Shown here one piece after another: positions 748 through 64,000 of a stretch of DNA of 64,000 bases. A model generated the notes under the pieces. The model had not been told where the DNA came from. It saw nothing but the letters and a program-made list of their open reading frames with translations, and ran no database searches. Made by a program: the position numbers and the translations under genes. Each line of letters starts with the position of its first letter. The first letter of the stretch is position 1. Source of the DNA: Solea solea (taxonomy: Eukaryota > Chordata > Actinopteri > Pleuronectiformes > Soleidae). The stretch covers positions 8,588,635 to 8,652,634 of the forward strand of contig NC_081153.1 of the NCBI RefSeq assembly GCF_958295425.1, read 5' to 3'.

Positions 748-1006
748 TCTGTAAACTGCTCACTCTCCCGCACCAAAGTCCATAGAGAAAATCTGTGTGT
801 TTTTAGCTCACATGGACACATGAGCTGCTGGTCTACTGCTGCCTCATTTTTGCTCAGTTTGAGCCACTTTGGAAAATCAGATTTTAAAGGATTTCAAACA
901 ATAAAGACAAAAAGAATACATTTTAAGTTACTTGATTAAGGCAGCAGTGTGCTGTGATCTAAAATCGCTATGGACTTTGGCGCAGACGTGTGAGCAGTTG
1001 ACAAAC
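748..1006. mobile_element. short inverted-repeat element, family 'CCAAAGTCCATAG'
   Basis: The left arm contains CACCAAAGTCCATAG and the right arm CTATGGACTTTGGCGC. The outer ends (GTAAACTGCTCAC and GTGAGCAGTTGACAAAC) also pair. The interior has no coding frame, so this looks like a non-autonomous terminal-inverted-repeat element. Related copies lie at 44466-44565, 50672-50990 and 52820-53122, with fragments near 54795 and 59255. Confidence 0.7.
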
Positions 1007-30113: not shown

Positions 30114-31106
30114 TCACCGATCCAGAACCCGACTATAATCCTGAGGGCCACAGCCGCCTTCACTCTTCAGTTCGGCAAATACTTGCGTGAAAAAGTGTGG
30201 GTCGGCGTTGATTCGCAGCATCTTCGCGCTGGTGGCGTCGATGATGGCGAGGCATCGGTCCCAGAAGGCCTCCTTACCCGCCTCCACCAGGAAGGGCTTG
30301 AGCGGGTACGAGATCTCGTTGCCCATGTAGGAGTAGGACAGGTAGAGGCAGGTGAGCAGGATGGCCTGCAGCTCGTGCTCTGACGCCACCAGGTCGCCGT
30401 CCACGACGTCCCGACACAGCATGTAGACGAAGACCACATTGGCAGGCGTGACGAAGGCCTGGTCCTGCCAGCCCTGCAGCAGCAGCGAGCGGTCCACGGC
30501 CCGCAGCCACAGCACCGGGTCGGCCGGGGACAGATGTTTCAGGCGGTAGCAGCGACAGCACAGGAACTCTCCCAGGCAGCGCAGGAGCTCGCTGGTGGAA
30601 GCCTGGACAATGACACGCTTAGGAGACGACGTCAACACGTTCTGAGGAGCTTTTTTCACAGACGAGAGCTGCTGGGGTTTGCTGTAGGCGTATCCGTGCC
30701 CCTGACCCATCCCCAGCCCATACCCAAGCCCCAGACCTAGTCCTGCTGGGCCCTCGTAGCTGGAGAGGTTGGCACACGACAGCGACTTCTTCACATTCTC
30801 GCGGTTGAGGTGCAGCACAGAGTCCTTCTGGTAGATGTTGATGTTGTTGTTGTTGTTAAGTGGCTCCCCGAGGGCCGTCGGAACACCGCAGCCTTTCTTG
30901 GTGTTGCCTTTCTTCTTCGTCGAGGCCACCAGTCGCTTCCATGTCAGTGCTGGGAGGAAGATGGACTGGCCCCTCTTTAGCCCGCGGTCTTTCTGGCTGT
31001 TGAGAGAGCGGCTGCTGATGCTCGGGTAGTGGCTGAGCGAGCCAGGACGGTTGTCATAGTAGCCTGATTTGCGAGAGTCAGGTGACAGAGACAGTACAGT
31101 GCCCAT
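30114..31106 (-). CDS. cdk5r1: cyclin-dependent kinase 5 activator 1 (p35)
   Basis: A single exon encodes 330 residues from ATG at 31106 to TGA at 30114-30116. The protein binds and activates Cdk5 in neurons at the plasma membrane. The start MGTVLSLSP gives the N-myristoylation glycine. [11 protein letters not shown] (106-116) and SSVKKAP (148-154) are family landmarks. The cyclin-box-like activator domain covers about residues 163-312 ([51 protein letters not shown]). Human p35 has 307 residues. The extra length here lies mostly in a poly-asparagine stretch (84-88) and a glycine/tyrosine-rich insert (119-140), which replaces the proline-rich linker of mammals. The single coding exon and convergence with myo1d match human. 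The ohnolog (1a or 1b) cannot be decided. Confidence 0.95.
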
Positions 31107-38350: not shown

Positions 38351-41149
38351 TCATTTCACTTTGTTTTCCTCCTCTATCACTACTATCTGGATGCCAGACA
38401 ACTGTCCGCTGGCGTCCAGCTCCAGCCCCTGAACCCCTTCAGTCTGCTCCTCCTGCATTTGGCACTGAGGCTCCTCCCCCTCGGGAGCCATTTTCACCTC
38501 CATGGCACTCTGAACGACCATGGAGGCTGCGTCTGTGCCCGAGTCTCCGCTCAGCTGCAGCTCCATCACTCCCACAGTCTGCTCCACCGGCGTCGGGTTG
38601 ATCTCGATGACCGTGTGTTCCTGACCAGATTCCACCTCGCTCTGGACTAGCATGGTGCCGTCCATCACCTGACCCTCTATGGGAACCACCTCTGTGCTGC
38701 TGCCCTGCTGGCTCAGGTGCACCAGCTCTACAGGGCTCATCATTGTCCCCAGCTGGCTGGAGTCCTGCATGGCAGCGGTGGTGCCCACCAGTGTGAGCCC
38801 CGAGGACGGGTGTAAGGTGATGGTGTCTGACTTTCCGTCTCCGGCCACCATGTAGCGAGTGAAGAGCTGTGACCCGGCGGGAAGCAGCGTGACGGTGTTT
38901 GAGGACTGGGCGAGGGAGGCAATGGGCAAACCCGCCACAGTGAAGGGCTGACCGACGGAGGACAGTGAGATGGGGGACAGGACGGTGAACTGCTGCGGGT
39001 GCAGGGTGGTCTGCTGGTTGACGGGGGAGGTCAGGAGCGTGGTGGTGGAGGCGGGTCTGTGGAGGCGAGGCCGCTTGGTTTGACGTTTGGGGGTTTTGCT
39101 TTTGGCCGGTTGTGGGCAGGAGAGAAGAGCTCGAACATGCTGCTGCTTCCTCTGCTGTTCCAGCTGCACTTCCAGACCTGCACACAGAACACAGTCAACA
39201 CCCAGTCAGTTCTGCCGGAGCTGTGAGTGCCCCCTGCTGACCCACTACATTAAAAACCAGCTCGTTAGCTCTGACTGAAAGCATGGCTGCCAGCGGAGAT
39301 ACAAGGAAAAATAGATTTGAGCCACTTAAAGGTACAGTGTGTAAAATGTAATGGTGAAGTTTCATGTTGCAGCTGAATATCCTTCACTTCACTCTTCTCT
39401 TCCAAGTGTGTTGGAGAAACAGTGTAGCCTTCAGTTAGCATCGAAGGTGGTGTTTAGTTTGTCCACTGTTGACAAGACTCGCCAAATAGAATATCTGGCA
39501 GCTTGAGTCTCCGGTTCTATGGTTGTTTTAACTGTCTTCTTGAAGAAAACAGTGAATATTTGGGGTTGAACAAGCTCCGTTCAGGCATAACGAGAGCAAG
39601 AAGAACCTCCCGGAAGGCCGTGTTTGCTGTGTACTCACTGCTGAGTGTGCTGAGGATCTGCTGCTGGCTGGGATCTGTCTGCTGCCTCCTCCTCTCCAGC
39701 ACGTTCTTCACCAAGTCCAGCAGGCCGAAGACTTGAGCCAGGTTACTGAGCACCGCCACCTCTACCAGACAGGAATCTGGGATCAGTGCGGCAATCAATT
39801 AAAGGGTCATGTGATCAGTCAGAAAGGAAAGGAACAAATTCAGCCGTTGTACATTTTATTCAGTGACGACTCTGATAGAAACCAGCAGCGGCGGCGGACA
39901 TTTTAAATTGTCCCGCTGTTGATTGTTTGTTTTTTTCATCCATCAGCTTAAAACCGGCTGTTGAATTTGTTCTTCCTCTCCCTTTATTCGTGCAAATGTA
40001 CGACTCATTTTTATTTGCTTACCTCACAAGTTCACTGCTCATTTTCCTTGATTACACACGTGACAGAGCCAGCCCTAACACTGACAACACTTTCTAAATG
40101 GACTGCGTCTGTGATTGGCTGTTATGGCTGCGCACTGTAGCTACAGCACAGGGAAAACGGAGACCATGTTCTCTATGTTCCTTAAAACGAGGGATTGAGC
40201 TCGTTTGTCTGTCTGTTTTATTGTGTTTAGAGGATGTAGGACATATTTTTATACTTATGAGGTTAGAGTTGTGGGTTCTTGTTTACATTCTCATTCAAAA
40301 GGTTTGGTCTTTGTGAACAGAAACGATAACGTAACATCATTCCTTTGTCTGAAAACAGGCTATGTGAAGCAAAACTATCAGCCCTGACTGAGAGAGCGTT
40401 TGTGCGGTATACAGCAGCAGAGCAGGGGCGGGAGGAGACTAGAAATGTTTATCCTGTCAAACTGTTGAACGAGCAGTAGAATTCACTTCTGAATCTTTTC
40501 TGTGTCTTGCTTGCTTTTATAGCTCAATGTTATGTTGCCTCTGTCTGTCTTGACATGAAACAAATCACTTCCTGTGTGCAGGAATGTTGCCAGGCATCTC
40601 AATACTGCTTATACTGACATAAATGGAGAGAGAGTTATGTGGAGCTGATAGACTTAATCAGCACGGTGGGAACTTATGTAACAATGATTTCAATCCAACA
40701 GACATTTTTCTATATATATGCTGTAAGTCTACAAACTACAGCTTTAAAACTCACATGCTGTAAGCGAGAAAATGCACATAAAGTTAAGAATCATGCAGAT
40801 CATTAGTGCTACAAAATCTACAATTGACCATAAATACACAAAGTGGACAATGGAAAGTGTTTACAATGTCTTTTCGTCGTTGTTTTAGTGGTTAACCCCG
40901 AGGGATTCAACATGGCCTAAATAGAAAAAGCATTTAAATGTAAGTGCCGTGAGGAGACAGAAATGGAACACTGCTAAATCCCTCTGAGCACAAACTCTAT
41001 AATTCACTATGTGTGTTGTTAATTATTATTTAAAAAGAAGGAAAAGGTGTCAATGAAGATTTATTCACAACTTTTTTTTTTGCTGCTGTGATGTCATGGT
41101 GAGTCTCACACACACATGCTCTGTAATGATAATGATATTCCCAGCAGAA

Positions 41150-44312: not shown

Positions 44313-44694
44313 GCTAAGAGTAGTCTCGACAGAGAGGCTGCTTTCACGGGACAGCTGTCCAGGAGTGTGTTCATCTGAAAAAAAAGAGGGCAAATAATGA
44401 AAGGTGAACGTCTAAGATAAAAACCTGCCAGCGGACAACCTTTTCTTAGAATACGGAGACATTTGTCAACCACTCACTCTCCGCCCTCAGAGTCCATAGA
44501 GATAATTGATGTTTTTAGCTCGTGAAAACACAGGAGGTGCTGGTCTACTGTTCTAAATAAGCATCTAATCAGACACTACTTTTTTTATATTAAATACACC
44601 CCTAGTCAGTAATTCATGCAAATTCATTTCAAATAACCAGGATGATCCCTTTGACTAAAACTACAACTACAAACTTACAATTAATGAGTTTAGT

Positions 44695-47554: not shown

Positions 47555-48662
47555 AATGACCTAAAACATGTAATTAGTGGAACTGAAATACAATACTTGA
47601 CCAATGTATTTCAAGTAAATCTACTTTACCAAGTCATCTACAATTTCTGCATTATTTCCATAATGATATTTCACTGACTACGAATTTTTTTATTGAACAC
47701 TTTGTGGGGGCGCCAGGACAGTAGATCACTGGCAGCCCGGTTTGGCAAAAATTATGCTTCCGAAATCTTTTGATGGCGATTCCGCTGGATATGCAGCTTA
47801 CGCCGCAACTCCAGTGCCAATCATAGCAGAAGCCCTTTTTAACCTGAGTCCTTGAATGCGTCATTATATATGGAAGCACAACATGTTGCTCAGTCAGAGG
47901 TTGAAAAACCAACAACATCAACCACAACATTATTCACGGTATTTTTGTATTCACGATGTACATGAAGACGTTTTTGCACAGAAATATATATGTATCAGTG
48001 ATTTAATCCTGGTCTGAGAGCGGCTTTCTGTGTAGATTTAATATCCGAAAGGCATTATGGGCAAAGGGGCGGGGCTTCTAACTACACGGTGCTGCGTTCA
48101 TGTAATGCAGGGACTTTTTAGTATCTCCAACTCCAAAAAAACATCATATATCAATGAATACAATAAAATAAAACAAAGCAACATCAAAACATTTACTATA
48201 TTATATAATTGGAAGACTTCCTCTAATTGTATGAATTTAATTTTTTTTTTATTGACAGCCATAAATAAATAGATAAATAAAAAACTCCAAACTAGGTCAT
48301 GATGATCCTCCTTCAACATGTCAGAAGAGGGCGCCAAACCTTGTTAAAAATGACACAGCCAGGACAAACATTATTCACTGGGCATCTATTTATTCAATTT
48401 TTTTTTAACCAATCAGTAAAATCACATCAGATAAAGGACTCCCTTATACATAATATAGAAAATAAATAACATTTATTTTAATAAAGCTGTGAAATGTGAG
48501 TGTGTGTGTGTGGGGCTGGAAGGTTCCAGGATGACCACAGTTCGACAGTGGGTTGATCTGATCTTTCCAGTGGGATGACGTAAAGCCTTCAAAATCACAG
48601 TTCGACATTTTACGGAACATGCTCATTTGCTGTCTTTCTGAGAGTGAGCAGAGCAAATAAGA

Positions 48663-50671: not shown

Positions 50672-50990
50672 TTTCCTGACAGAAAATGGAAGTTTGTGTC
50701 ATTTTGTAAACCACTCACTCCCCCACACCAAATTCCATTGTGAAATTGCACAAGTTTACATCACAGCACACAGGTGTTGTCGATCCACTGCTGCCCTTAT
50801 CAGTAATCTCACATGTGTTATTTTGTCAATTCGGTGTTTGAATAATTTGCCACAGATTTACCTCTGAGACACAAACTCACCAAACATGGCAGCAATAGAC
50901 CAGCAGCTCCTGTGTCCCTGTGAGCTAAAATGACTGATTTTCTCTATGGGGTTTGGTGCAGGAGGCCGAGTGTCTTTCAAACTTCAATTG
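50672..50990. mobile_element. inverted-repeat element, family 'CCAAAGTCCATAG' (copy 2)
   Basis: Left CCACTCACTCCCCCACACCA and right TCTCTATGGGGTTTGGTGCA are diverged inverted ends. ATAGACCAGCAGCTCCTGTG is shared with 820-840 in reverse. Confidence 0.65.
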
Positions 50991-51762: not shown

Positions 51763-54059
51763 TCAGCAGTGGCAGCCCTTTTCGGCCGACGCAGTCGCCA
51801 GCTCCTCCTCTTCGTCAGCCGGGTAGAGGACCTTGGCGGTGAGGCCACTCTTCACGCCGTCCCACCCGTCGCGCGTGACAATCTCCCCCATCTTCATCAG
51901 CTCGTAGATGTCTCTGGTCAGCAGCTCAAAAGCGCGGTCCACGTTGCTGTTGCACTTGGCCGAGGTCTCCACGTAGCGGATGCCCAGCTCGGCCGCCAGC
52001 TGCTCCGCCTCGTCCCGCGTCACCTTGCGGTCCTTGTTCAGGTCGCTCTTGTGGCCGATGAGGATGTAGACCATGTGGTGGGGCAGGATGTGCTCGCTCA
52101 CCTCCTTGTGCCACTCCCTCACGTGCTCAAAGGTTTTGTGGTTGGTGAGGTCAAAGACGAGCAGCCCGCCAACAGAGTTACGGTAGTACGAGGTCGTGAT
52201 GGACCTTGAAGGAAGAGAGACAACATTAATGAAGATAATCTACCAATGCTGGATACGTAAATAAATACCTTAACACTGACTAACTGTAATGTGCCTTAAA
52301 ACAAGAAAAAACAGAGCCAAAAACTAGGCACAACTGGCCAAAATTTAAGAAATATTTTCTAAAAATGGGTCTTAAAGAATTTATACCTTTAGATTTCCTT
52401 ATATTTGAACACAGACCAAACCATGAAGTGAACTTTAAGTCTGTATTAAAGTTCAAAGTAAGCTGTAATGCAAAAACCTTTCTTTTCACGGAAAAGAACA
52501 AGAACATTTTCCCAGAAACAATCAGTTTTTGCAGTGTAAGAGTTGTTTTTTTTTAGATTTTGGCACAAGTCTCAACTCATCTGGACCAAGTTAATCCTCA
52601 AACCTGTCTCAAGTTAGTCCAAAATCAAGTCCTAAATCATTTAAGACAGGTCAAAGTCAAACCTCATGTATAAAACCAATCCAAGTCAAATGTGTTTTGA
52701 CATGTGATTGTATGAGACACTGAGACATAGTCACATGTCTCAGCGTCTCAACATGACTACAGGTGATTTTAGCCACACATGTTTTTAAGATAATAAAAAT
52801 ATCTTAAGAATATGTCCCTCACTAAACAGCCTTTTCCAGAAGGAAACTGAAGAGTCCTCTCTCCCTGCACCAAGGTCCATAGAGAAAATGGGCGTTTTGA
52901 GCTCATAGAGACACATAAGTTCCTGGTCTACTGCAGCCTCATTTTGAACTTTTATGCCAGTTAATTAATACAGAACAAAGGACTTAAAATGCAGAAATAA
53001 CTGAATAACCTATATAAATGTAATGATGGAGGCAGCAGTGGATCATCAACACTCCTGTCTGCTGTGGTGTAAAAACGCTGTTTTTCTCTATGGACTTTGG
53101 TGCAGGGAGTGATTGCTTTACGATATATATAATATATATATATCATATATAATATATAATTACAATCACGGTATTTGGAACAATATTTTTTACAACAATT
53201 TCACAATAAAAGTGTTGGATTTGATATGAAACAATATAGTCGGAATCGGGGATGCAAGATGAATCTATAAATAATAAAAAAACATTAGAAATACAGAAAT
53301 ACCTGATTATAGCTTGATATTAAGTGGGAGGCCACAGGTTTGACACCTCTGCTTTAAAGTTAAGAGCAGTTTCATTTGGTTTGACCCAGAGACCACATCA
53401 TGGATACCATGACAGAGTCTGATTTGACCAAAAAGAATTTGATATCTAGCTCAAAAATTAAGATATCCTTTAATTTTTGCCTCAATGAAAGTAATTAAAT
53501 CAGTGGAATTAGTTAAATTGCCCCAGACCAGGATCTTCAGGTCCCATCAGAAGAGTCCTGGACTACTTTTAGAACAGTAGACTTTTTAACACACACACGC
53601 TGGCTCTATGTGTCTGTAATGATGACAGCAAGAACAAAATGACTGCTTTATTCCACAAACACAAGGTGAACGAGTGAAGTGAAGGAAAACCCCATCAGAC
53701 GCTGGAGGAGATCTGAGAGACGATCCATGAAAGAGAAGAAGCAACAGATGAAAGAAGAAGAGAAACACACATCTCTGTCTGTCTGTGTGGGTTCTTGTAT
53801 TTGTTACCTCTTTAGGGGCTTTTCTGGACCAGTAGTCCTCATGGAGACCAAAACTTGGTTCTAATGAGGCAGAACCTCATTTCTGAGGAACTACATTTAT
53901 GGTTAAGGTTAAGTTTAGGGATAAGGCTTTGTTTATACTGTTCAGGGGAATATAACAGGAAATGAGGACAGTTTAGATGGTCCCCCTGATTCTTTTGAGG
54001 CTCGGTTTTAGGGTTTGAAATTAGGTTTTGGTTAAATATTATGCATTTAGTTTGCTGTT

Positions 54060-54105
<46 letters not shown>

Positions 54106-55735
54106 TGTGTATGTTTTGTTGCAGGTATTACTCATTTTGTCACAGTTTTCACATAATAGGGACTTGTCTTCCTTATGGGGACAAAAATCATGTCCCCATA
54201 ATGTAAATGATTACATTTTAAGGTAGAAACATGTTATAGTAGTAGTTATGGTTAAAGTCTCCAGGAAATGAATGTAAATCATGGAGACCAGATTGTGTGT
54301 GTGTGTGTTGCCCTGGAGACAGTGACGAGCTGCTGTACCAGGGACTCAACCATCCATGTGTCCCAGATATGAATCTTCCCATCATCCGTGAACGGATGAA
54401 ACGAGTCACCCCGTCTTCACTCACACCAACCATGTGAGTTAAATCATATTAAATGTTTTTGTTTTTCATCTCCACCTCACATTGACCTTTTTATATTTAT
54501 ATTATCTATATCAGGAGGCGGCCATTTTGGACCACCATTTTTTTTTTTTTTTTTTTACAGTAGCCCACAATGGACAAAGTCAACATGTTCTGATGCTGAC
54601 TGAAGGCTACAAAAGTGAAGAGGTGAGGAATATTCAGCTGCAGCATGAAATTGTACACACTGTGCCTTTAAAACTATGTTAAATCTGTCCACACTCGCAC
54701 TGCCTCCATCAGTAACTTAAAAATTTGTTATTTTGTGATTTTTTTTTGCTTGAAATCTTTCTTAAACGTAAAAAAGAAGCAGCTCATGAGATAAAAACAC
54801 TGGACTTTGGTGCAGGAGAGTGAGCATTGTAATTAACAATCTCTGCTGCTGCCTGTATAAATGACATTGTAGTTCTATAAACATGTCATCACTGATAACT
54901 TGATACAGCTGTTACACCTCCCTCTTGTCCTTTCTCTCCCCCAAATTTCCTTTCACCCCAACCCGTCGAGGCAGATGGCTGCAAATCTTTGTGTGTGGTT
55001 CTGTCAGAGAATTCTTCCACTGATGCCTTGTGTTTGCTCATTGTGTGAACTGTTGTGTTTCTCTTCTCTCTATAATATTGAACAGGTTTCTGCCTCACTA
55101 TATACAGTGTCTTGAGATAATGTAAGTTGTGATTTGGCGTTATACAAATATAATAGAAATGAATTGTGCAAAATGTTACTTTCCAGCAGGAAATGGCTCT
55201 AACAAAAAGATATTTTTTAAAAACCCAGATTTAGATATAGACACCACATCTCTCTGTATGTGTTGCCGTGGAGACTGTGGACTGTAGGCTGCTGTGTGAC
55301 GGAATAAAAAAAGGGGCCTAAATATGAGGAGGCTGCTCATCATCTGTGAATGGATGCAGTGATTCACAGTCACTCAGACCAGAATCTGTGTTTAACCATT
55401 TTATTCTCAATGTTTCCACTCCGTTACACCACAATGGACACAAAAGAATCACTCCGCGCTTCGTTATTATTTCATTAAACATCTCTCTCTGATCGTTCAG
55501 ATTTTTTTAAAGGTTCTTACCTGAAGCGCTCCTGGCCTGCCGTGTCCCAGAGCTGCAGCTTTATCTTCACCCCGGGTTCGATGTCGAGGGAGCGGGCGTA
55601 GAAATCCACGCCGACCGTGGGATCCGCCACATCACTGTAGATCCCGTCCGTGAAGCGCTTCAGCAGCGACGACTTCCCCACCGTGGAGTCCCCGAGCAGG
55701 ATGATCCTGAACTGGTATTGCCACAAAATATCCAT
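51763..55735 (-). CDS. rab42: Rab42 small GTPase
   Basis: Two exons (55521-55735 and 51763-52204) encode 218 residues. The intron is about 3.3 kb, with donor GTAAGA after GAGCGCTTCAG and a CAAG acceptor. Rab proteins cycle between GDP and GTP on membranes to direct vesicle traffic. All nucleotide-binding motifs are intact: GDSTVGKS (15-22), switch I T40, WDTAGQE (63-69) with the catalytic glutamine 68, GHKSD (122-126) and ETSAK (151-155). The C-terminus is CHC (216-218), a double geranylgeranylation signal. The nearest families are Rab39 and Rab42. [10 protein letters not shown] and the adjacent gmeb1 and snoRNA host gene favour rab42, as at human 1p35.3. Start: [10 protein letters not shown], the only upstream methionine compatible with Rab length. 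A (GT)n run lies 50-80 bases upstream of the ATG. Confidence 0.9.
52820..53122. mobile_element. inverted-repeat element, family 'CCAAAGTCCATAG' (copy 3)
   Basis: CCCTGCACCAAGGTCCATAG on the left and CTATGGACTTTGGTGCAGGG on the right are inverted ends differing at one base. The element lies inside the rab42 intron. Confidence 0.75.
53785..54310. repeat. dispersed repeat with GGTTAGGG-like tracts (copy 5)
   Basis: Blocks GAGGAACTACATTTATGGTT, AGGTATTACTCATTTTGTC, CTTATGGGGACAAAAATCAT and GTCTCCAGGAAATGAATG occur in the same order as at 2938-3260. A (GT)n run of about 19 units (54064-54102) sits in the middle. It lies in the rab42 intron. Confidence 0.75.
54515..54671 (+). mobile_element. TTAA-flanked MITE, 3' part
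   Basis: GGCGGCCATTTTGGACCACC, a long T run, TACAGTAGCCCACAATGGAC and the end ACACACTGTGCCTTTAA. It lies in the rab42 intron. Confidence 0.7.
54905..55165 (+). mobile_element. teleost retroelement 3'-end fragment
   Basis: Phrases CCAACCCGTCGAGGCAGATG, TGTTTGCTCATTGTG, GTGTCTTGAGATAATGTAAG and GTGATTTGGCGTTATACAAA are those of a widespread fish LINE/SINE tail, ending in an ATAGAAATGAAT-like tail. It lies in the rab42 intron. Confidence 0.65.
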
Positions 55736-56164
55736 GGCATGACGAGAGGACAGGGTGTCAAAGAACTGTCTCCGTCTCTGTCTCCCTCTGTGTGTGTGTG
55801 TGTGTGTGTGTGTGAGAAACAAAGCCCTGTGTGGAGCTGTGTTTACATGGAGCTCAGTCTTCTTCTTCTACTGCTGCTCACGGAGCGGCCGCAGCACTGG
55901 TCATGTGACTCCCTCACCTTTAGCTCCACTCCTATAAAACCCGCTGAATGAGTCGATTGTGTGTTAAGAAATGTTTGCAGGATAATCTGGATTTAAAGTC
56001 ACACGGAAACACAGCTGAGGTTTTATTGTTACTGTTCTAATTGCTGTTGATGTTGTGCACAGTCAGTCTTTTGTCTCTGTCGCGAGGCTCAGTCTGATTT
56101 GGTCATTTTTAATATAAGCACTGACGTGAAACTGCGATATTTAACAACTGTTTGCTAAAGCAGA

Positions 56165-56196
<32 letters not shown>

Positions 56197-56526
56197 TACA
56201 CAGAGGAGGAGACAGGCTGCTGTCCGTGGTTCTGAAGTGGGACAACAGACACCCCACTTCCGGCTTTGCTCTCGCTCCATAATGTCATTATTGTGTCACT
56301 ATAAACATATAATTATGTATTTTCTGTCAATATGTACTTCTATTTAAAAAGTGTTGCATTAAAAAGTAAAAAAAAAGCCCGAAATACAACGGATTCGTAA
56401 AAAAATAAAGTTAGAACACTACATCTCCCATCATGCAAGTGGTGCGCGCGTGACCTACCCGGGCCAATCAGAGAGCAGCTGCTCGGAACTAGCCTGTATA
56501 AAATGGGATGGGAACCGCCTTCCGTT
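55736..56526. promoter_or_regulatory. divergent promoter interval, rab42 (-) and snoRNA host gene (+)
   Basis: About 0.8 kb separates the rab42 ATG from the snoRNA-host start. It contains a (GT)n run (55788-55814), a (CACG)n/(CA)n run (56165-56198), a CACGGAGCGGCCGCAGC block near rab42, and, close to the host gene, ACTACATCTCCCATCATGCA (56411-56430, ZNF143-type) and GGGCCAATCAG (56461-56471, CCAAT box). Confidence 0.6.
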
Positions 56527-56538
56527 CTCTTCTTCTTC
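56497..56538 (+). promoter_or_regulatory. TATA box and 5'-TOP start of the snoRNA host gene
   Basis: TATAAAA at 56497-56503 is followed 24 bases downstream by a pyrimidine run TTCTCTTCTTCTTC (56525-56538). Starting at the C at 56527 would give a terminal oligopyrimidine leader, the standard start of vertebrate snoRNA host genes. Confidence 0.7.
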
Positions 56539-57436
56539 ATGTTCTCCGTGAGGTGGAACCCAACCTGACATTTGACAATGGTAAGACTTTAGAGAAACAT
56601 CTGTTTGATTTACACACTAATATTTACTCTGCACACGTTTTTAATGCCTCATGAAACTCCATGGAATTTATGCTTTATGTTTGCTAGCTATGTGAATACT
56701 AAGTGTGCTGACATGACTAGCAAAAGCGGCCTGGTGTGGTCAGAAGGGCCCGGTCACTGCTCACCTTAGCATTTTAACAACGTTATATTACACGTATTAA
56801 ATAACGTGAAACTATTTTACGTGTACATATGCGTCAGCTGAAGGCAGCGAACACCGGTCCTGGTTATTAGAAACTGGTTAGCAGTAGCTAACTTTTATAT
56901 TGCTAGACGTGGGTTGACCACGTGGTAGTTTTTTTTTTTTTTTTTTTTTTTTCCTTGCACAAACTACATTGAAACATTTTTCGTACACCTGTTAGATTGA
57001 ATGCCTATTTTTTGCAAACTACCTTGTAAGTGCGAAAGACCAATAAACGACCAGATTTTTATTTTTTAATGACATTATCTGGAAAGTATGCAATAAGAAT
57101 TTATAGCATCACCAAGGACTCGAGTTTTGTGGAAACGTCTTGCATTGAGTTTTGATTTAGTAGTTCCAGGATTCTTTTTCCTGTTTATCCAATAGTTTCA
57201 ACTTTTAACATTTTAGGTAATTCCAAGTATGGACTGTGTATATGACCTAGATTATTGGATTATTAATGTTATGGTGTCATGTTTTTCACTTTATTATAGT
57301 GAATACTGGAATGTAACATTTGTTTCTAATGAGTACTTGCTGTATTCTCTCCAGGTTAAACCAGTCATGGCTCAATCAAACCACTCCCAGTGTGGAAGAC
57401 TGCATCCAAAACCGGTAAGATGACTCGATTATGGTT

Positions 57437-57572
57437 AATGCTGTGTAGCAACAGGCTCCGATCGAAGCCGCTCATGCTCTCATGTAGCACTGAATGGTCA
57501 ATACGAAGCCGAGATGAAGACTTTCACCGACGGTCGCTGTTCAGTTTCAAAGTAACTGTTTCAGCAACATTT
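57437..57572 (+). ncRNA. candidate H/ACA snoRNA (intron 2)
   Basis: The 5' hairpin pairs ATGCTGTGT with ATGTAGCAC-type sequence (with G-U pairs) below an unpaired pocket, and GGCTCC with GAAGCC above it. The hinge ATACGA (57501-57506) fits the H box ANANNA. A weaker 3' hairpin (GCCGAGATG with TGTTTCAGC, ACTTT with AAAGT) precedes ACA at 57567-57569, three bases from the proposed end. The length of 136 is typical. It would guide pseudouridylation, but no target was assigned. Confidence 0.5.
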
Positions 57573-57814
57573 TGGGAAAGGACATCTGCTCTAATGTATG
57601 GTCAAAATTTGTGTTTTCGTCTACTAAATCTGCAGTAGATGCAGTGGACTAAAATCGAATGAATTTTTTTTTTTTTAAGTCGAATCATTTAACCTTTTAT
57701 AAATACAATGACTGTCTCTCTGCAGGTTTTTGTTTTTGGATGACACAGAGCCCAAAGTAGAGGAACAACGTCACTTAAATGTAAGTTCTTGAGTCCTATT
57801 TTAATTGTATAATT

Positions 57815-57883
57815 CTGGCTGTGATGACAAACTTGCCCTCACTGAAATAGGTCTGATTGAGACACTTAATGGAACTGAGCCAC
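57815..57883 (+). ncRNA. candidate C/D box snoRNA, copy a (intron 3)
   Basis: C box GTGATGA (57821-57827) and D box CTGA (57875-57878) are brought together by a TGGC/GCCA terminal stem. There is an internal D' box CTGA (57842-57845) and a weak C' (TGATTGA). The 10 bases ACTTGCCCTC upstream of D' are complementary to GAGGGCAAGT in vertebrate 18S rRNA, just before the universally conserved GTGCCAGCAGCCGC. That suggests a guide for 2'-O-methylation there. It lies 149 bases from the next splice acceptor. Confidence 0.7.
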
Positions 57884-58121
57884 AACAAAAACATGTTAAT
57901 TTGAGTAGCAATGGGGTTTTAAACTGTAAAATAACCAGCTGCAGTAGATGCAGTGGACTAAAATCTAATGAGTTTTTTTCTTTTTTAAGTTGAATCATTT
58001 AACCTTTTCTAAATAAAACTGTCTCTCTGTAGGCTTTCATTTTTGGATGACACGGAACCCAAAGTAGAGGAACAACATCACTTAAATGTAAGTTCTTGAG
58101 TCCTATTTTAATTGTATAATT

Positions 58122-58190
58122 CTGGCTGTGATGACAAACTTGCCCTCACTGAAATAGGTCTGATTGAGACACTTAATGGAACTGAGCCAC
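58122..58190 (+). ncRNA. candidate C/D box snoRNA, copy b (intron 4)
   Basis: Identical to copy a across all 69 bases, with C box at 58128-58134 and D box at 58182-58185. It ends about 70 bases before the exon-5 acceptor, the spacing favoured for intronic C/D snoRNA processing. This copy therefore keeps the ancestral placement. Confidence 0.7.
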
Positions 58191-58357
58191 AACAAAAACA
58201 TTTTAATTTGAGTAGCAATGGGGTTTTAAACTGTAAAATAACCAGCTGGTGCTCTCTTTAGGTGACCATGACTGAAAAACAAGTGGCCAGATGAGGATGA
58301 CTGGTGTGAAGGTAAGATTAAACTTGACTTGGATCGTATTAACTGGAGTTATAAGTT

Positions 58358-58491
58358 CCAGCATGCTATCCTAAGGACCTGGGCTTGTTCCGTAGTTCAA
58401 GGTTCTCCATGTGCATGCAAGAAAACAGAGGATGGTCTTTGGCTGTTGTGGCTCTTTGTGTCATCTATAGTCACTCAACTGTCCTACATGC
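58358..58491 (+). ncRNA. candidate H/ACA snoRNA (intron 5)
   Basis: The first hairpin is closed by GCATGC (58361-58366) with GCATGC (58413-58418). Hinge AGAAAA (58420-58425) fits the H box ANANNA. The second hairpin is closed by GGATGG (58430-58435) with CTGTCC (58479-58484), using G-U pairs. ACA at 58486-58488 lies three bases from the proposed end. Architecture and length (about 134) fit the class well. Human SNHG12 carries SNORA44, SNORA61 and SNORA16A, but I cannot say which this would be. Confidence 0.6.
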
Positions 58492-58655
58492 ACATCCTGT
58501 CAAGGTTATGATTCTAATGTGTTTTACTTATTTCCAGACATTACTCAGGCTCATGAGTTGAAGTTCTTCAGGCTGTTTTGGCTCTATGGTCGTCTTCCTA
58601 GTTTAAAGGTATGTGAAAAGTTTAACGTTTGTTTATCAAATGGCTGTAAACTGCT

Positions 58656-58729
58656 CTGATCTATGATGATCACTAAATAATATTATGTGGACTGTTGGAT
58701 GAAGCTTGCGGATATGGGACTGAGATCAG
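58656..58729 (+). ncRNA. candidate C/D box snoRNA (intron 6)
   Basis: C box ATGATGA (58663-58669) and D box CTGA (58720-58723) are closed by a perfect six-base stem CTGATC/GATCAG. The guide stretch before the D box is GCTTGCGGATATGGGA. It ends 72 bases before the exon-7 acceptor, the usual spacing. It is a plausible counterpart of SNORD99, the C/D RNA of human SNHG12, but that is inferred from position only. Confidence 0.7.
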
Positions 58730-58906
58730 GCAAAGATTCTCCAGAATGTTGCAGGAGATTTAACTGCATAGTAATTTTTTTTTTTTTGGTTTTCACTTCA
58801 GGTGAGGATGTGTTGGACCACAGGAAGTCTGGACCTGCTGCAGGCCCTGGAAGAAACATGTAGACTGTCATGTAAATGAGTGCAGAGATGGAACTGTTTA
58901 AAGAGA

Positions 58907-58912
58907 AATAAA
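58907..58912 (+). terminator. polyadenylation signal of the snoRNA host gene
   Basis: AATAAA in GAGAAATAAAAGTTTG, about 105 bases into the last exon. The transcript would end near 58930, facing the ctps1 3' end. Confidence 0.75.
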
Positions 58913-59163
58913 AGTTTGAAACATGAATACATTTCTTTAATCTTTACATTGGAGCTTTGAAAGGTTGTCTATCATGTAGCAGAACCAAAACATAAGGCCA
59001 CAGGAGCAAATGACTCAATCTGACATGCAATTTTCATAAGTTAGTGAACATCAGTGACATAACATTTGCAGTCAAAAATTAATGCAATAGTACAGTAATC
59101 TTAATGAAGACATTTTAGCCTTCAGTGTGCAAGCTAAAGAACTTTAACGTGAGTAATTCAATT

Positions 59164-59169
59164 TTTATT
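59164..59169 (-). terminator. ctps1: probable ctps1 polyadenylation signal
   Basis: TTTATT on the plus strand reads AATAAA for ctps1, about 285 bases beyond the stop codon. The two convergent transcripts would end within about 230 bases of each other. Confidence 0.6.
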
Positions 59170-59451
59170 CTGTACAAGTTAAACAAAACACATTTGAGAA
59201 CATTTCATGGTTTGGAAACATCTTTACTATAGAGAAAATGTTACTGTTGCATCATGGGCTTTGGTGCAGGAGGGTGTATGGTTAACCTTAGGCTTTCAGT
59301 TGGAAAATAGTGACTCGCACAGATTTCTAAGCAGAATTACTTTAGTGGCTAAGATCCATTTGTCGCAGCTAGGAGTCTCAGTGAGTGTCCATGTCAAGAG
59401 TCAGTTCTTTCCAGCGCCTCGTACAACCGCACAGAAAGGAGTGAGTTGAGA

Positions 59452-64000
<4,549 letters not shown>

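What the first reader, a model, noticed from the sequence alone, without database searches (positions are those of the whole stretch)
56527..58930. Compact snoRNA host gene with a snoRNA-like sequence in five of its six introns
Seven short exons without a common frame, a TATA plus TOP start, and two H/ACA-like and three C/D-like sequences in consecutive introns. This is seen directly as motif pairs, stems and splice sites. The host-gene interpretation follows from the known organisation of vertebrate SNHG genes. Orthology to SNHG12 is inferred from rab42/gmeb1 linkage.
Basis: partly seen in the sequence, partly recalled or inferred. Interest (0 to 1): 0.75.

Follow-up and report, generated by a model that had tools for sequence, protein, structure and literature searches.

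The report
Fish SNHG12-like snoRNA host gene
A short, apparently non-coding fish gene that looks like human SNHG12 carries five small guide RNAs for ribosome modification in its introns, two of them copies of a guide that sits in another gene, PUM1, in chicken and apparently in humans.

Summary
In a teleost genome, a seven-exon gene without a long reading frame lies at 56527-58930 (+). Rfam models match a snoRNA in each of introns 2-6: SNORA16, SNORD103/85, an identical second SNORD103/85, SNORA44 and SNORD99. I detected none in intron 1. Human SNHG12 hosts SNORA44, SNORA61, SNORA16A and SNORD99, so three of its four families are shared. Linkage to rab42-like exons, U11 and gmeb1 agrees. The SNORD103 and SNORD99 guides pair with printed 18S and 28S strings in the expected register.

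In chicken it is predicted in PUM1 introns, and in human it is listed with the PUM1 locus. In this fish the only two matches in the genome search are here, and the pum1 region, 5.5 Mb away on the same contig, has none. A 309-bp exon-plus-intron tandem duplication made the second copy; the snoRNA half is nearly identical while the exon half has diverged.

A new member of a known kind with a modest evolutionary twist. No expression data were available.

The parts
56464..56503 (+). core promoter motifs: CCAAT at 56464, TATAAAA at 56497-56503, 30 nt upstream of the proposed start
56527..56580 (+). exon 1, beginning with a TOP-like pyrimidine run CTCTTCTTCTTC; start site inferred, not mapped
56581..57354 (+). 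intron 1, 774 bp, no snoRNA found
57355..57414 (+). exon 2
57451..57587 (+). SNORA16 (H/ACA) in intron 2; H box AGATGA, ACA at 57582-57584 (both read by eye)
57630..57938 (+). first unit of a tandem duplication (end of intron 2, exon 3, most of intron 3)
57726..57780 (+). exon 3
57814..57884 (+). SNORD103/85 copy 1 (C/D) in intron 3; ends 148 nt before the 3' splice site
57939..58248 (+). second unit of the tandem duplication
58033..58087 (+). exon 4, duplicate of exon 3 (49 of 55 positions equal)
58121..58191 (+). SNORD103/85 copy 2 (C/D) in intron 4, identical to copy 1; ends 70 nt before the 3' splice site
58262..58311 (+). exon 5
58359..58491 (+). SNORA44 (H/ACA) in intron 5; H box AGAAAA, ACA at 58486-58488 (both read by eye)
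58538..58608 (+). exon 6
58655..58731 (+). SNORD99 (C/D) in intron 6; ends 70 nt before the 3' splice site
58802..58930 (+). exon 7 with AATAAA at 58907; 3' end approximate

Best explanation
This is the teleost orthologue of SNHG12. RNA polymerase II starts at a TATA/TOP-type promoter. The pre-RNA is spliced and the spliced RNA is non-coding. Exonucleases trim each debranched intron 2-6 down to a protected snoRNP: SNORA16 and SNORA44 (pseudouridine guides), SNORD99 (guide for a 28S A, human A2774) and two identical SNORD103/85 RNAs (guide for an 18S G at position 552 of the printed reference, human G601 by recalled numbering). SNORD103/85, housed in PUM1 in chicken and apparently in human, has only this detectable host in this fish, and a local 309-bp tandem duplication doubled it. 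Shown here: gene anatomy in sequence, family matches, guide pairing with printed rRNA strings, linkage, genome-wide search result, no match around pum1. Inferred: transcription start, splicing, processing, and modification.
For: Rfam matches in five consecutive introns. Genome searches with RF00188, RF00190, RF00608 and RF00405 return 2, 1, 1 and 1 matches, all five in this gene. SNORD103 guide: 10 Watson-Crick pairs, D'+2 to D'+11, with the printed 18S conserved region, D'+5 on G552; 2 of 20000 shuffled guides reach 10 pairs with that 43-nt string. SNORD99 guide: 13 pairs (12 Watson-Crick, one G-U) with a printed 28S primer, D+5 on an A; in a control with 21 of the 22 guide letters, 3 of 20000 shuffles reach 11 Watson-Crick pairs. 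The strings were chosen because these targets were recalled, so this is a check of a named target, not a search of whole rRNA. Human 28S Am2774 is assigned to SNORD99 (passages), with SNHG12 named beside it in one. Chicken table: HBII-251/U103, 18S G, PUM1 introns 9, 12 and 21 (passage). Human SNHG12 content (passages). Linkage: Ras-family exons that I read as rab42, U11 at 47706-47840, gmeb1.
Against: SNORD103 and SNORA44 score below Rfam gathering scores (41.2 against 45, 52.6 against 55). Folding z-scores are weak for the SNORA16 5' hairpin (-0.87) and for both C/D RNAs (-0.45, 0.29), clear for the other three hairpins (-2.80, -3.02, -2.31). SNORA61 was not found in the gene, and its genome-wide search did not complete. 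The far-side neighbour is a CTP synthase gene, not what I recall beside human SNHG12. The chicken table puts an RNA with the ACA44 target in RPL21 (passage), so hosts of this set are not fixed. A zebrafish promoter paper found no enrichment of TATA boxes at either start type in its dual-initiation promoters, the class to which it assigns zebrafish snoRNA host genes (passages). No RNA data.
Confidence: 0.93

Rival explanations
1. A protein-coding gene that happens to carry intronic snoRNAs, like a ribosomal-protein host gene.
For: TOP-like start, as ribosomal-protein genes have (PMC6954239, passages).
Against: The longest ATG frame is 29 aa, no longer than in shuffled RNA. The duplicated exons 3 and 4 differ at 6 of 55 positions while the following intron part differs at 1 of 161.
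Confidence: 0.03
2. A degenerate host gene: the snoRNA sequences are relics and are not processed.
For: Two families are below Rfam gathering scores.
Against: The C/D boxes and guides are intact, and these are the only matches of their families in the genome searches, so relics would leave the sites without guides of these families.
Confidence: 0.03
3. The SNORD103-like pair is not the main guide for that site, and another SNORD103 of this fish was missed elsewhere, for example by the search filter or in an assembly gap.
For: Sub-threshold score; the genome search scored only 57 of 62085 candidates.
Against: Same 18S guide and D' register. No RF00188 match at E up to 1 in 50 kb around pum1 or 50 kb around pum2. 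The exact core pattern occurs 3 times in the genome, two of them here; the third has no CTGA directly after the guide.
Confidence: 0.06

Closest known systems
Human SNHG12
   Same: Multi-exon non-coding host; hosts SNORA16A, SNORA44 and SNORD99 (passages); linkage to RAB42, RNU11 and GMEB1 (human order recalled).
   Different: Human also hosts SNORA61, not found here; this gene hosts two SNORD103/85, which the human list lacks.
PUM1 as host of SNORD103/SNORD85 (chicken GGgCD15; human SNORD85, SNORD103A, SNORD103B)
   Same: Same C/D family and 18S guide, also in several copies. pum1 and this gene lie on the same contig in this fish.
   Different: The host here is the SNHG12-like gene; the fish pum1 region has no match.
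snoRNA host changes and 'constrained drift' (PMC3511168; PMC3349704)
   Same: Both say that snoRNAs can lie in different host genes in different species (passages).

Membership tests
SNHG12 | Spliced non-coding host RNA | tested here: inconclusive
   Seven GT-AG exons and a longest ATG frame of 29 aa; splicing and conservation of frames not observed
SNHG12 | Hosts SNORA16A, SNORA44, SNORA61, SNORD99 | tested here: inconclusive
   Three of four families present; SNORA61 not found in 54000-62000
SNHG12 | Genomic linkage to RAB42, RNU11, GMEB1 | tested here: met
   Ras-family exons read as rab42, U11, gmeb1; the other flank is CTP synthase
SNHG12 | 5'-TOP start site | not testable with these tools
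   Pyrimidine run at 56527 and TATA 30 nt upstream; no start-site data
SNORD103/SNORD85 (RF00188) | C and D boxes with terminal stem | tested here: met
   C box GTGATGA at 57821, D box at 57875, stem 4; copy 2 likewise at 58128 and 58182
SNORD103/SNORD85 (RF00188) | Guide upstream of D' for the 18S G | tested here: met
   10 Watson-Crick pairs, D'+5 on G552 of the printed 18S region; fish rRNA itself not examined
SNORD103/SNORD85 (RF00188) | Rfam score | tested here: inconclusive
   E 4.4e-6 but 41.2 bits against a gathering score of 45
SNORD99 (RF00608) | C/D boxes, stem, guide for 28S A2774 | tested here: met
   68.7 bits over gathering 60; stem 7; 13 pairs with a printed 28S string
SNORA16 (RF00190) | Two hairpins, H box, ACA box, Rfam gathering score | tested here: met
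   84.5 bits over 35; both hairpins fold, the 5' one no better than many shuffles (38 of 200); boxes read
SNORA44 (RF00405) | Two hairpins, H box, ACA box | tested here: met
   Folds with z -3.02 and -2.31; boxes read; 52.6 bits against gathering 55
Box C/D and H/ACA snoRNA generally | Mature RNA bound by fibrillarin or dyskerin | not testable with these tools
   no RNA data

The most novel reading that the evidence does not exclude
In this fish lineage the guide for 18S G601 (SNORD103/85) has a different host: it was lost from pum1, or was never there, and is made only from SNHG12. There a tandem exon-intron duplication, followed by gene conversion over the snoRNA half, keeps two identical copies. 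Modification of the 18S G601 and 28S A2774 sites and of the SNORA16 and SNORA44 targets would then all depend on one TOP-type promoter.
Probability: 0.65. Interest if true: 0.4.

Novelty: new member of a known kind. Interest (0 to 1): 0.33.

Why it matters
SNHG12 is much studied in human cancer as a long non-coding RNA. A fish gene that shares its intronic snoRNAs, while its joined exons hold no long frame and its duplicated exons differ more than its duplicated snoRNAs, fits the view that the snoRNAs are the conserved product. The SNORD103 difference gives a concrete case for testing how snoRNAs change hosts: outgroup fish and shark genomes would show whether PUM1 or SNHG12 is the older home. 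The two copies, identical in RNA but 148 nt and 70 nt from their 3' splice sites, are a natural test of the spacing preference of intronic C/D snoRNAs.

Tried and rejected
Intron 1 snoRNA: rejected. Rfam at E up to 10 gave four matches, all on the minus strand and all below gathering scores. A relaxed C/D rule and a naive H/ACA rule gave none there; the same H/ACA rule gives one candidate in intron 2 and four overlapping ones in intron 5.

Coding gene: rejected by frame length.

Other SNORD103 copies: C1:5544215 matches the core pattern, but no CTGA follows the guide directly and I saw no stemmed D box by eye. Around pum1 and pum2 (50 kb each), cmscan at E up to 1 gave 17 and 5 matches, none reaching its gathering score and none RF00188.

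gmeb1 by Pfam and by solved structures: no hit; it was named.

rRNA strings in viral contigs: 0 matches. The 15-base guide pattern there gave 35 stretches, L001-L035, which I take as chance and did not use.

Literature: seven topic searches listed 20 of 33, 20 of 126, 20 of 72, 6 of 6, 12 of 26, 33 of 33 and 10 of 120 papers. No listed title or shown abstract describes SNORD103 in a fish SNHG12. I read passages only, so this is weak evidence of absence. Two further searches were for rRNA strings. The zebrafish rRNA methylation paper PMC7668251 is not held.

SNORA61 genome-wide: not completed. That RF00420 is SNORA61 is recalled.

Full report
The window is from a ray-finned fish. The reading frame at 38357-39205 (-) has 85 protein hits; the 18 that carry a name are all from fish, 9 of them called glucocorticoid modulatory element-binding protein 1, and the best named ones are from Paralichthys and Siganus, which are percomorphs (taxonomy recalled). 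Pfam and solved structures gave nothing for it. The host genome is held as G000, 642 Mb, and the window is contig C40:8588635-8652634.

Anatomy. Seven exons with GT-AG boundaries read out cleanly. The promoter has CCAAT, TATAAAA and a pyrimidine run 30 nt after the start of the TATA box. The exons are 50-71 nt except the last (129 nt to an approximate end), and the joined RNA of 474 nt has no ATG frame longer than 29 aa, which is what shuffled RNA gives. Splicing and the start site are inferred from sequence.

snoRNAs. Rfam models match one snoRNA in each of introns 2-6 and nothing credible in intron 1. SNORA16 and SNORD99 pass the gathering scores; SNORA44 and both SNORD103 fall 2.4 and 3.8 bits short, with E-values of 4.4e-9 and 4.4e-6 for the 8-kb search. 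The five genome-wide matches of these four families all lie in this gene. The tool scores only the best candidates (57 of 62085, 43 of 51350, 60 of 150445 and 42 of 57945), so divergent copies could be missed. SNORD103 copy 2 and SNORD99 both end 70 nt before the 3' splice site; copy 1 ends 148 nt before it. That C/D snoRNAs prefer about 70 nt is recalled, not from a call.

Targets. The eukaryotic 18S region TGGAGGGCAAGTCTGG... is printed as positions 547-589 (PMC3940700, passage). Both SNORD103 copies pair with it over 10 Watson-Crick pairs and place D'+5 on G552. That this is human G601 is by recalled numbering. A printed 28S primer (PMC9402732, passage) pairs with the SNORD99 guide over 13 positions, 12 Watson-Crick and one G-U, with D+5 on an A. 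Human 28S Am2774 is assigned to SNORD99 in two papers (PMC8393311 and PMC5597630, passages). The rRNA of this fish was not examined, and the targets of SNORA16 and SNORA44 were not tested.

Orthology. Human SNHG12 hosts SNORA44, SNORA61, SNORA16A and SNORD99 (PMC7154078, passages). Here three of these four families are present. Upstream lie Ras-family exons that I read as rab42, a U11 gene and gmeb1, in the order I recall for human. Downstream is a CTP synthase gene, which I do not recall beside human SNHG12.

The extra family. In chicken, HBII-251/U103 is predicted in PUM1 introns 9, 12 and 21 (PMC2653536, passage). In human, SNORD85, SNORD103A and SNORD103B are listed with PUM1 at 1p35.2 (PMC9152224, passage); that they are intronic there is recalled. 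In this fish, pumilio exons lie on C40 and C36. The C40 exon matches PUM1 above PUM2 among solved structures, and its other exons read like PUM1 by recalled sequence. The C36 exons read like PUM2 by recalled sequence. I took 50 kb around each, covering the exons that I recognised; whether every 5' exon is inside was not shown. A cmscan of these found no SNORD103, a text search for its guide found none, and a strict C/D rule found none on either strand of the 50 kb around pum1. So the host of this snoRNA differs between this fish and chicken. Which state is older cannot be told from one fish. Host changes of this sort are already described in general (PMC3511168, PMC3349704, passages).

The duplication. 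A unit of about 309 bp (end of intron 2, exon 3, most of intron 3) is repeated head to tail at 94.6% identity over 313 columns. Divergence is uneven: 6 of 93 compared positions in the intron end (4 gap columns left out) and 6 of 55 in the exon differ, but 1 of 161 in the snoRNA half; for 12 of 148 against 1 of 161, Fisher p = 0.001. The cut between the two parts was chosen after seeing the alignment, so the p-value is generous. Because the intron on both sides of the snoRNA is as unchanged as the snoRNA itself, gene conversion is a better reading than selection on the RNA alone; it is inference.

Verdict. It is an expected gene, with a host difference for SNORD103 that specialists in snoRNA evolution would like to date.

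Noticed in passing
window 47706-47840 (-): U11 spliceosomal RNA gene, 108.1 bits over a gathering score of 39, between gmeb1 and the rab42-like exons.
   Followed up: partly
window 30114-31106 (-): Intact 330-aa reading frame of the CDK5 activator family (Pfam PF03261, 333 bits).
   Followed up: partly
window 57630-58248: The two duplicate units diverge unevenly: 6 of 55 differences in the exon, 1 of 161 in the snoRNA half, suggesting gene conversion.
   Followed up: partly
window 763-949, 44464-44550, 50706-50964, 52858-53121: Dispersed repeats 69-84% alike, in both orientations, probably a mobile element family.
   Followed up: no
L054 6911-7082 (+): Weak SCARNA7-like match, 29.4 bits against a gathering score of 65, in the stretch upstream of pum1.
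   Followed up: no
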